Positions 24,269 through 46,493 of a stretch of 56,184 nucleotides of DNA are shown here, one piece after another. The translations under genes were made by a program, and so were the position numbers. The stretch spans positions 1 to 56,184 of the forward strand of contig JARVKB010000028.1 in assembly GCA_029775925.1 (NCBI GenBank). The letters are read 5' to 3'. This DNA is from Nitrososphaeria archaeon (lineage in GTDB: Archaea > Thermoproteota > Nitrososphaeria > Nitrososphaerales > JACAEJ01). The notes beneath the pieces were generated by a model. The model was not told the DNA's origin. It searched no databases and worked only from the letters and a program-made list of their open reading frames with translations. Position 1 is the first letter of the stretch, and every line of letters begins with the position of its first letter.

Positions 24269-25951
24269 TTAATAGATTATTTCTCTGAGTCCTTTTCCTG
24301 CTGGAATCATTGGAAATACATTCTCCTCAGGAGGTATAGGAACATCGATAACTGTGGTCACATCACTTTCTAATGCTTGTTTGACAGCTCTTTTGAATTC
24401 ATCAAGAGAACCAACACGAATTCCTTGAGCTCCAAAGGCTTCAGCTAATTTTACAAAATTAGGAAACTTTCCTAATTCTACTGCTGAATATCTTCTGTTA
24501 TAAAATAATCTTTGCCATTGAGCCACCATGCCCAGCATAGAGTTGTTTAATATAACAACGATGACAGGTATGTTCTCAGTTACGGATGTTGCAAGAGAGT
24601 TTGCAGTCATAGTGAAGCTGCCATCGCCAGCTATGTCAACGACTGGAACATCAGGTCTAGCAACTTTCACTCCAATAGCAGCTGGGAATCCAAATCCCAT
24701 CGTTCCCAAGCCTCCTGAGCTTATGAAGGTTCTAGGTTTATAGACTTTGAAGTATAGAGAAGCCCACATCTGATTTTGACCTACTTCTGTAGTAACTATA
24801 GCATCAATTGGTAAAATTTCTCTCAACTCTCTCAAGACTTTCTGAGGGACTAGGTCTTTATCTTTCTCTACCCTTACTTTATCCTTAAACTCCTCTTTTA
24901 TTTGCTGAATTCTTTTTAGCCAAAGGCTATTCTCTCTCTTCTCCAAGCGTTTTGATAATGAATTATACAATTCAAAAAGGGTCTTACTCACATCTCCTAC
25001 TATGGGTACATCTACAGCTTTATTCTTCCCTATCTCTGAAGGATCTATGTCGATATGGATTATCTTTGCATCAGGACAGAACTCGTCTATCTTGCCTGTC
25101 GACCTATCCGAGAACCTCGTCCCTACTGCTAATAAAACATCGGCTTCTAGAATCGATTTATTCGCTTCTAGTGTGCCATGCATACCTATTACTCCAAGAG
25201 ATAATGGATGATTCTCAGGGAAGCAACCTTTACCCATGAAAGTTGTTGCAACAGGGGCTAATAAAAGTTCAGATAAAGCCTGTAAATATTGAGAAGCATT
25301 AGAGATGATAACCCCTCCTCCTGCCAATATAAAGGGCCTCTCAGCTTTAGTAAGTAACTCTGCAGCCTTCTCAACCTGAAGTGGATGAGGCGATATATTG
25401 GGCTTATACCCTCTGATCTCGACCTTATCTGGAAAATCCATATCTGCAACCTCAGTCTGTACATCTTTTGGAAGATCGATTACTACAGGGCCAGGCCTTC
25501 CTACAGAAGCTATCTGAAAAGCCATCTTCACAATTTTAGGAATCTCGGAAGCATGCCTTGGTTGAAAGTTGTACTTAGTTATAGGAGTCGTTATCCCTAT
25601 TATGTCTGTCTCTTGAAAGGCATCTTTACCTATCATAGATCTTGGCACTTGACCTGTTATGGCAACTATTGGGACAGAGTCCATGTAAGCATTAGCTATC
25701 CCTGTTACTAAGTTGGTAGCACCAGGGCCTGAAGTTGCCATGCAAACTCCTACTCTACCACTAGCTCTAGCATAACCATCTGCCATATGGGCTGCTGATT
25801 GTTCATGCCTAGCAAGGATATGCCTTATCTTTGAATCGAGGATTACATCATAGACAGGCATTATAGCTCCGCCTGGTAGACCGAATATAACCTCTACCTT
25901 TTCTTTGTATAAAGCTTCTATAAGGGCATGAGCCCCAGACATTTTAATCAT
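24269..25951 (-). CDS. ilvB: Acetolactate synthase large (catalytic) subunit
   Basis: Thiamine-diphosphate enzyme, first step of valine/leucine synthesis. The catalytic glutamate is in ARHEQSAAHMADGYARASG, and the ThDP/Mg motif is VDIAGDGSFTMTANSLAT to NNSMLGMV. 560 residues, usual. First gene of ilvB-ilvN-ilvC-leuA-leuC-leuD. AGGAGGGG six bases before the ATG is one of the strongest ribosome sites in the window, and it can be paired into a hairpin by upstream leader sequence. Confidence 0.95.
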   Translation of the reverse strand: MIKMSGAHALIEALYKEKVEVIFGLPGGAIMPVYDVILDSKIRHILARHEQSAAHMADGYARASGRVGVCMATSGPGATNLVTGIANAYMDSVPIVAITGQVPRSMIGKDAFQETDIIGITTPITKYNFQPRHASEIPKIVKMAFQIASVGRPGPVVIDLPKDVQTEVADMDFPDKVEIRGYKPNISPHPLQVEKAAELLTKAERPFILAGGGVIISNASQYLQALSELLLAPVATTFMGKGCFPENHPLSLGVIGMHGTLEANKSILEADVLLAVGTRFSDRSTGKIDEFCPDAKIIHIDIDPSEIGKNKAVDVPIVGDVSKTLFELYNSLSKRLEKRENSLWLKRIQQIKEEFKDKVRVEKDKDLVPQKVLRELREILPIDAIVTTEVGQNQMWASLYFKVYKPRTFISSGGLGTMGFGFPAAIGVKVARPDVPVVDIAGDGSFTMTANSLATSVTENIPVIVVILNNSMLGMVAQWQRLFYNRRYSAVELGKFPNFVKLAEAFGAQGIRVGSLDEFKRAVKQALESDVTTVIDVPIPPEENVFPMIPAGKGLREIIY

Positions 25952-26081
25952 AATAAACCCCTCCTAAAAACCTAAGAGCAAAAATTTAGTAGGCTTATTG
26001 CAAGACAACAGAGGACAAAAGAACTACTTTCAATAAGAGCACTAGGTAAAGAATACCGCTCTGGCGTTTGTAGATGTCCTC
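25952..26081 (-). promoter_or_regulatory. Structured 5' leader of the ilvB operon
   Basis: Read in plus coordinates, a nested dyad runs from 26011 to 26081: GAGGACA/TGTCCTC (26011-26017 with 26075-26081), CTAC/GTAG (26024-26027 with 26070-26073), AGAGC/GCTCT (26036-26040 with 26058-26062) and GGTA/TACC (26045-26048 with 26054-26057) around a five-base loop. A second helix pairs 25985-25993 with 25960-25968 (nine pairs with one mismatch), which covers the AGGAGG ribosome site of ilvB. Such an arrangement could act as an RNA switch. No known riboswitch class recognised. Confidence 0.5.
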
Positions 26082-26103
26082 GATGCTATTCATAGATCGT
26101 CTT

Positions 26104-26111
26104 ATTATAAA
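26104..26111 (-). promoter_or_regulatory. Candidate TATA box for ilvB operon
   Basis: TTTATAAT on the minus strand. A start site 25-26 bases downstream would fall at about 26082, exactly at the first base of the long dyad of the leader. A second minus-strand TTTATATA lies farther up at 26188-26195. Confidence 0.5.
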
Positions 26112-26187
26112 GATTAGATAGCAATTAATAAATATATTGGTGGAATGCTATAATTCTATGGTAAGTCTTTGATGAAATTTATTGCAC

Positions 26188-40592: not shown

Positions 40593-40768
40593 AAAGAAAT
40601 GATATTTGCGCAATAAATGTTCATAGTTTTATTCTAGGAAAATTATTAACTCTTGATCATTATTTTTACTTGAAAAATCTTTTAGGCTGTGTTTTTATGG
40701 TTTAATTTTATTATCCATAAAATTTAACTATTGGGAAATTCAATTTATATGAAAAGGGGTTTTAAGAT

Positions 40769-40906
40769 GTGGATTTGAAGGAATACCTTCCTTTATGTGA
40801 GAGATGTGGTCAACCAATCGATGATTGTAAGTGTATTTGCCCATATTGTGGTGAAACTTGTTGTTGTGAATGTTGTATAGGCATGGATAAGGCTACTGGC
40901 GGGTAA
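40769..40906 (+). CDS. 45-residue cysteine-rich protein upstream of oxidoreductase
   Basis: 11 of 45 residues are cysteine (C10, C13, C20, C22, C24, C27, C31-33, C35, C36), a density seen in metallothioneins and cluster-binding peptides. GTG start after AAAAGGGG; stop 4 bases before the TTG of the oxidoreductase alpha subunit, so probably same transcript. No family recognised. Could bind Fe-S or store copper or zinc, or serve as a small electron carrier for the oxidoreductase. Confidence 0.6.
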   Translation: MDLKEYLPLCERCGQPIDDCKCICPYCGETCCCECCIGMDKATGG

Positions 40907-40910
40907 GATT

Positions 40911-43797
<2,887 letters not shown>

Positions 43798-46393: not shown

Positions 46394-46493
46394 TGCTCCG
46401 GCCGGGATTTGAACCCGGGTCAACGGCTATAGGTGATAAATCCCCGCCTAACTCGAGAGGCCGCTATGCTTGGCCGGGCTACACCACCGGAGC
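46394..46493 (-). tRNA. tRNA-Glu (CTC) with intron
   Basis: Acceptor arm GCTCCGG/CCGGAGC plus discriminator A, T arm CCGGG-TTCAAAT-CCCGG, anticodon stem GCGGC/GCCGT. The anticodon loop is interrupted by a 25-base intron (46429-46453) between positions 37 and 38, the usual archaeal site, leaving a 75-base mature tRNA with anticodon CTC. CCA is not encoded. Confidence 0.88.
46429..46453 (-). other. tRNA-Glu intron
   Basis: 25 bases starting AGTTAGGCGG and ending CACCTAT on the minus strand. TAGG and CCTA inside it can pair, in keeping with the bulge-helix-bulge substrate of the splicing endonuclease. Boundaries are inferred from the cloverleaf. Confidence 0.7.

What the first reader, a model, noticed from the sequence alone, without database searches (positions are those of the whole stretch)
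26011..26081. Nested RNA hairpin at the start of the ilvB-leuD operon leader
Four successive dyads (7, 4, 5 and 4 bp) nest around a five-base loop over 71 bases. The predicted start from the TATA box at 26104-26111 falls on its first base. This looks like a real 5' RNA element, perhaps sensing a branched-chain amino acid or its tRNA.
Basis: partly seen in the sequence, partly recalled or inferred. Interest (0 to 1): 0.6.

Follow-up and report, generated by a model that had tools for sequence, protein, structure and literature searches.

The report
Archaeal ilv operon leader-peptide attenuator
The archaeal genes for making leucine, isoleucine and valine are preceded by a tiny gene whose last codons are mostly those same amino acids, followed at once by an RNA hairpin; this looks like the ribosome-based starvation switch known from bacteria, which we could not find described in archaea.

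Summary
The hairpin at 26081-26011 (- strand) folds as described (-18.8 kcal/mol; z -2.2), but it is probably not the functional element. Its inner arms are not conserved, it shows no covariation, and it lies inside an unreported 32-codon ORF (26093-25995, -) that ends 43 nt before ilvB: MNSIEDIYKRQSGILYLVLLLKVVLLSSVVLQ*.

All six family members compared keep this ORF. Across the order (Nitrososphaerales, by inference), 40 of 70 ilvB upstream regions have an ATG-started ORF with at least 7 Ile/Leu/Val in its last 12 codons, against 0.8 in shuffles and 0/58 before hisG or trpE. pN/pS is 0.46 in the ORF's frame and 1.04 and 1.15 in the other two. A TATA-like box lies 31-40 nt upstream of its ATG. 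In 34 of 49 leaders a hairpin of unrelated sequence begins within 4 nt of the stop codon (8.1 expected). Some Bathyarchaeia and Archaeoglobi show the same layout.

Best reading: ribosome-mediated attenuation by charged Leu/Val/Ile-tRNA. No antiterminator was detected, and most leaders lack a U-tract, so the step after ribosome stalling is inferred. Such leader peptides are known from bacteria; I found no archaeal precedent in the open-access papers searched. Nothing here was measured experimentally.

The parts
26122..26141 (-). Conserved BRE/TATA promoter element (ACCAATATATTTATTAATTG), predicting a start about 10 nt before the leader ATG
   Evidence: Same element, ACCAATATRTTTATTARTY, in the family members read; across the order TATA-like hexamers pile up 31-40 nt before the leader ATG (64 hits in that bin, 10 or fewer in any other). 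Not measured.
25995..26093 (-). Leader ORF, 32 codons plus stop: MNSIEDIYKRQSGILYLVLLLKVVLLSSVVLQ*
   Evidence: conserved in six genomes of the family; pooled in-frame pN/pS 0.46 against 1.04 and 1.15 in the other frames over 12 sister pairs from the order
26001..26054 (-). Run of control codons (14 Leu/Val/Ile in 18 codons)
   Evidence: Sequence; order-wide enrichment
25970..25994 (-). Stop-adjacent hairpin (GCCTA...TAGGT), starting on the first base after the leader stop; weak in this genome, stronger in its relatives
   Evidence: Helix 97.2% paired in the family with one compensatory change; order-wide 34/49 against 8.1 in shuffles; weak here (z 0.54) and -13.4 kcal/mol in sister G002
25966..25970 (-). 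Short U-tract directly after the hairpin
   Evidence: U-rich tail in all six f1 genomes, but not in most other families
25960..25965 (-). ilvB Shine-Dalgarno sequence AGGAGG
   Evidence: Invariant in the family alignment
24269..25951 (-). ilvB, acetolactate synthase large subunit, first structural gene of ilvB-ilvN-ilvC-leuA-leuC-leuD (25951-19441)
26011..26081 (-).

Best explanation
The ilvB-leuD operon is controlled by ribosome-mediated attenuation. The transcript starts about 10 nt before a short leader ORF whose last codons are mostly Leu, Val and Ile, and a hairpin begins on the first bases after its stop codon. With ample Leu/Val/Ile-tRNA the ribosome finishes the leader and leaves, the hairpin forms, and expression of ilvB is held down (by early termination or pausing of RNA polymerase, most likely). 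When these tRNAs are uncharged the ribosome lingers in the last codons, covers the 5' arm of the hairpin, and the operon is read. Supported by sequence analysis: the leader ORF, selection on its reading frame, codon bias, promoter position and the hairpin abutting the stop codon. Inferred: translation, stalling, the direction of control, and the step that the hairpin acts on. The confidence given is for Leu/Val/Ile-responsive leader-peptide control; for the specific occlusion step it is about 0.45.
For: Leader conserved in six family genomes. Order-wide: 40/70 ilvB upstream regions pass against 0.78 (max 2) in shuffles, 1/70 on the reverse strand and 0/58 before hisG and trpE; no other amino-acid class enriched; every one of the 15 families has at least one region scoring 6 or more of 12. 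Specificity: of 882 ORFs of 150 aa or more tested, 28 had such an upstream ORF, and most of these are ilvB. Selection: pN/pS 0.46 in frame, 1.04 and 1.15 out of frame. Ile/Leu/Val is 97% at position -2 and 71-86% at -3 to -8 from the stop. TATA-like box 31-40 nt before the leader ATG. Hairpin starts within 4 nt of the stop in 34/49 (shuffles 8.1, max 12), peaking at offset 0, with unrelated sequences in different families. Also in Bathyarchaeia (G224, G238, G337, G342, G358, G362) and Archaeoglobus-like L116, where it is followed by six U. In E. coli a ribosome near a stop codon represses a terminator hairpin a few bases downstream (PMC4824070).
Against: No antiterminator (leader x hairpin pairing mean z 0.03). 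No U-tract after the hairpin in most families. Ribosomes stalled at positions -5 to -8 may not reach the hairpin. The hairpin criterion fails in all ten f10 leaders and the hairpin is weak in the window itself. 30 of 70 ilvB genes in the order do not pass the leader criterion. The pN/pS frames were aligned by protein, which slightly favours the leader frame. No expression data.
Confidence: 0.8

Rival explanations
1. The leader peptide controls translation of ilvB rather than transcription: the stalled ribosome alters access to the ilvB ribosome-binding site, or leader termination and reinitiation feed ilvB. In the window's family the leader's UCCUCC could pair with the ilvB Shine-Dalgarno sequence AGGAGG.
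For: UCCUCC (UCCUCU in the window) in the leader and AGGAGG before ilvB in the f1 alignment; leader stop only 26-74 nt before ilvB; no U-tract in most families.
Against: No leader x Shine-Dalgarno pairing beyond chance across families (mean z -0.10); G001 removes UCCUCC with synonymous changes; in most leaders the hairpin ends well before the ilvB start.
Confidence: 0.25
2. The short ORFs encode small functional hydrophobic or membrane proteins.
For: Reading frame under selection; C-termini rich in hydrophobic residues.
Against: Ile/Leu/Val make up 70% of the last ten residues but Phe only 1.4%; uninterrupted hydrophobic runs are 3-10 residues; N-terminal halves differ between families; no Pfam or NCBIfam match; the ORF sits at the operon start with a hairpin abutting its stop.
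Confidence: 0.05
3. One reading: the 71-nt nested hairpin is a riboswitch or tRNA-binding element.
For: It folds somewhat better than shuffles; an outer stem can be drawn in relatives.
Against: No covariation, inner helices not conserved; outer stem broken by synonymous changes in G001; no Rfam match; the leaders of other families share no sequence with it.
Confidence: 0.03
4. The nascent peptide itself arrests the ribosome in response to free amino acid (TnaC/SecM-like), rather than the ribosome pausing for uncharged tRNA.
For: Within f1 the C-terminus (SSVV) is well conserved.
Against: Between families only composition, not sequence, is shared.
Confidence: 0.07

Closest known systems
ilvB leader peptides of Actinobacteria (Corynebacterium, Mycobacterium, Streptomyces; PMC1262725, PMC11857589)
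   Same: Short ORF with runs of Ile, Val and Leu codons before ilvB; in C. glutamicum transcription starts one nucleotide before the leader ATG; in Actinobacteria the codon runs overlap candidate terminator hairpins.
   Different: Bacterial; U-tract terminators, and in C. glutamicum a three-hairpin terminator/antiterminator system in a 292-bp leader. The archaeal leader-to-ilvB gap is 26-74 nt with one hairpin abutting the stop codon and usually no U-tract.
Classical ilv and trp attenuators of Proteobacteria (own knowledge)
   Same: Leader peptide with cognate codons before a biosynthetic operon.
   Different: No antiterminator pairing was detected here, and no second hairpin.
Repression of terminators by ribosomes near stop codons in E. 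coli (PMC4824070)
   Same: A ribosome on the last codons prevents a hairpin a few bases downstream from folding.
   Different: Synthetic reporter and intrinsic terminator; not amino-acid specific.

Membership tests
[quoted passage not shown]
   40/70 against 0.78 in shuffles; 0/58 before hisG/trpE
Ribosome-mediated amino-acid attenuator | The ORF is translated | tested here: inconclusive
   Selection on the frame (pN/pS 0.46 against 1.04 and 1.15) implies translation; no footprint data
Ribosome-mediated amino-acid attenuator | The ORF lies in the operon's 5' leader transcript | tested here: inconclusive
   TATA-like box 31-40 nt upstream of the leader ATG; start sites not mapped
Ribosome-mediated amino-acid attenuator | Terminator hairpin followed by a U-tract | tested here: inconclusive
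   Hairpin at the stop in 34/49; U-rich tail in f1, L056 and L116 but not in most families
Classical (E. coli trp type) attenuator | Mutually exclusive antiterminator pairing | tested here: not met
   Leader x 5' arm duplex energies equal codon-shuffled controls, mean z 0.03, 0/49 below -2
Ribosome-mediated amino-acid attenuator | Expression responds to the cognate amino acid | not testable with these tools
   Needs experiment
T-box or known riboswitch | Match to a known RNA family | tested here: not met
   No Rfam match but tRNAs; only chance-level snoRNA scores at E up to 5
Structured RNA element at 26011-26081 | Covariation in homologues | tested here: not met
   RNAalifold covariation term 0.06

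The most novel reading that the evidence does not exclude
Archaea have their own widespread and possibly ancient class of ribosome-mediated amino-acid attenuation, in which a stop-codon-abutting hairpin is controlled purely by ribosome occlusion, with no antiterminator and usually no U-tract.
Probability: 0.45. Interest if true: 0.88.

Novelty: new variant of a known kind. Interest (0 to 1): 0.78.

Why it matters
Amino-acid leader-peptide attenuation is textbook bacterial regulation. A 2010 survey knew such leaders only from Proteobacteria and Actinobacteria and added Firmicutes (PMC2965389), and I found no archaeal case in the open-access library. If real, this would show that archaea couple ribosome position to operon expression for amino-acid sensing, make transcription-translation coupling in archaea testable at a native locus, and add unannotated short genes to ammonia-oxidising archaea. 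It also raises whether the mechanism is ancestral or arose more than once.

Tried and rejected
Antiterminator pairing, leader x Shine-Dalgarno pairing and leader x 3'-arm pairing: none beyond chance. Trp- or His-rich leaders before trpE and hisG: none convincing; start codons of trpE were poorly placed in that scan. Ile/Leu/Val leaders before leuA, ilvC, ilvD, leuB, leuC and leuD in the fetched loci: one weak hit, a TTG-started ORF before ilvD in L058. A Val-rich upstream ORF before a 2-oxoacid:ferredoxin oxidoreductase gene (window about 40.8 kb): chance, it overlaps what reads as a Cys-rich zinc-ribbon-like ORF in another frame and the region has no match in relatives. No known RNA or protein family.

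Full report
WHAT WAS CLAIMED. The hairpin exists on the - strand and folds at -18.8 kcal/mol (z -2.19, 4 of 200 shuffles as good). The opposite strand folds at least as well, and the complete leader is ordinary (z -1.19).

WHAT LIES THERE. Reading the - strand shows an ORF from ATG 26093 to TAA 25995, MNSIEDIYKRQSGILYLVLLLKVVLLSSVVLQ*, which contains the whole hairpin and stops 43 nt before the ilvB ATG at 25951. A DNA search of related genomes and an ilvB search gave the homologous leaders: G001/G002 MEDVEIDYKYQGSVLSLE(D/V)LLKVVLLSSVVLQ*, G004 MEDVKSENTYEGIAQRLDFIEVIVLSSVVLQ*, G005 MEDGKSDFEYQGIALRLDSIIVVLLSSVVAL*, G006 MEDDKSDFRYQGIALCLDFLGVVLLSSVVVL*. The seventh genome of the family, G003, had only a distant ilvB-like match and was not compared.

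On the six-sequence alignment A1 its pairs do no better than shuffles (65.8% against 64.7%), with no covariation and inner helices kept in little more than half the cells. An outer stem can be re-drawn in another register but G001 breaks it by two synonymous changes.

THE ORDER-WIDE PATTERN. I fetched 70 ilvB upstream regions from 15 families of the same order. The order is Nitrososphaerales by inference: named Nitrososphaera and Nitrosocosmicus records (L064, L068) carry leaders like those of family f8. Requiring an ATG ORF of 8-45 codons with its stop 20-80 nt before ilvB and at least 7 Ile/Leu/Val in its last 12 codons, 40 of 70 pass, against a shuffle mean of 0.78 (max 2), 1 on the reverse complement and 0 of 58 upstream of hisG and trpE. 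At 8 or more it is 32 against 0.17. No other amino-acid class shows any enrichment. Among 882 ORFs of 150 aa or more in the fetched contigs only 28 have such an upstream ORF, and most of those are ilvB.

ANATOMY. Averaged by family, Ile/Leu/Val is 97% at codon -2 from the stop, 71-86% at -3 to -8, 40% at -1, and falls away beyond -9. TATA-like hexamers pile up 31-40 nt before the leader ATG (64 hits; no other 10-nt bin exceeds 10), so the leader ORF should be the first ORF of a transcript with a very short 5' UTR. Pooled over 12 sister pairs, pN/pS is 0.46 in the leader's frame and 1.04 and 1.15 in the other frames. A simple hairpin of at least 6 bp starting within 4 nt of the stop codon is present in 34 of 49 leaders against 8.1 (max 12) in shuffles, and the count peaks exactly at the stop codon; it is 34 of 39 without family f10, which has 0 of 10. 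Hairpin sequences are unrelated between families (f16 AGCCCACA..TGTGGGCT; f9 ACCCAGCG..CGCTGGGG; f7 GGACTCACA..TGTGAGTCC). In the window's family this helix is 97% paired with one compensatory change, although in the window's own genome it is weak (5 bp).

BEYOND THE ORDER. Upstream regions from other families of the phylum gave convincing leaders with the same layout in Bathyarchaeia genomes such as G224/G238, G337, G342, G358 and G362 (that these are Bathyarchaeia is inferred from the group's ilvB relatives). Where the region before ilvB is coding, often leuA, I saw none. Outside the order, 8 of 33 with non-coding upstream sequence pass against 0.6 in shuffles, of which about five look convincing (starts TTG and GTG were allowed there). 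Archaeoglobus-like L116 has MNATPFSEKIGVSFLGVVILVGIIVVLL* followed by AGGC-GTTCT-GCCT and six T; L103 and L056 are similar.

HOW IT PROBABLY WORKS. Cognate codons at the end of a leader, selection on its frame and a hairpin touching the stop codon point to ribosome-mediated attenuation by branched-chain aminoacyl-tRNA. No antiterminator or leader x Shine-Dalgarno pairing was found, so I favour direct occlusion of the hairpin by a ribosome held in the last codons. E. coli data show that a ribosome near a stop codon represses a terminator a few bases downstream (PMC4824070). Because most families lack a U-tract, whether the hairpin terminates, pauses or acts on translation or decay is open. I give about 0.8 to Leu/Val/Ile-responsive leader-peptide control and roughly 0.45 to the specific occlusion model.

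WHAT IS KNOWN. Candidate ilvB leader peptides with Ile/Val/Leu runs are described in Actinobacteria (PMC1262725), and C. glutamicum IlvL begins one nucleotide after the start site (PMC11857589). Eight literature searches returned no archaeal amino-acid attenuator; one tool paper mentions archaea in passing among domains with regulatory uORFs (PMC10219788). The library holds open-access papers only, so this does not prove absence.

LIMITS. Most genomes are metagenome assemblies without names; 30 of 70 order members do not pass the leader criterion; start codons of ilvB were chosen by rule; no expression data exist here.

Noticed in passing
window 46394-46493 (-): tRNA gene with an apparent intron, found by Rfam (47.6 bits) but missed by ARAGORN; sequence resembles tRNA-Glu (by eye).
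   Followed up: partly
L116 3950-4200, L103 450-680, L120 4700-5030: Archaeoglobi ilvB genes have short upstream ORFs in the same layout; L116 has hairpin plus six U right after the stop. Common origin or convergence is open.
   Followed up: partly
L068, L133, L046 (Nitrosocosmicus-like ilvB upstream regions): A conserved leader ORF (M(N/S)SSETI...) with only a few Leu at its end, possibly a reduced form of the leader.
   Followed up: no
L085, upstream of ilvB: DHVE2 archaeon has an upstream ORF ending HLLLSVLVILLIIIVQ, 107 nt before ilvB, with a G-rich hairpin and U-tract between.
   Followed up: no
window 40700-40935 (+): Val-rich upstream ORF before a 2-oxoacid:ferredoxin oxidoreductase gene; judged a chance overlap with a Cys-rich ORF in another frame, not found in relatives.
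   Followed up: yes
L149, L153-L168 (family f10, ilvB upstream): These leaders lack the strong stop-adjacent hairpin; several instead share an A/T-rich dyad ATTTTAACA..TTAAAATTATGG further downstream.
   Followed up: no
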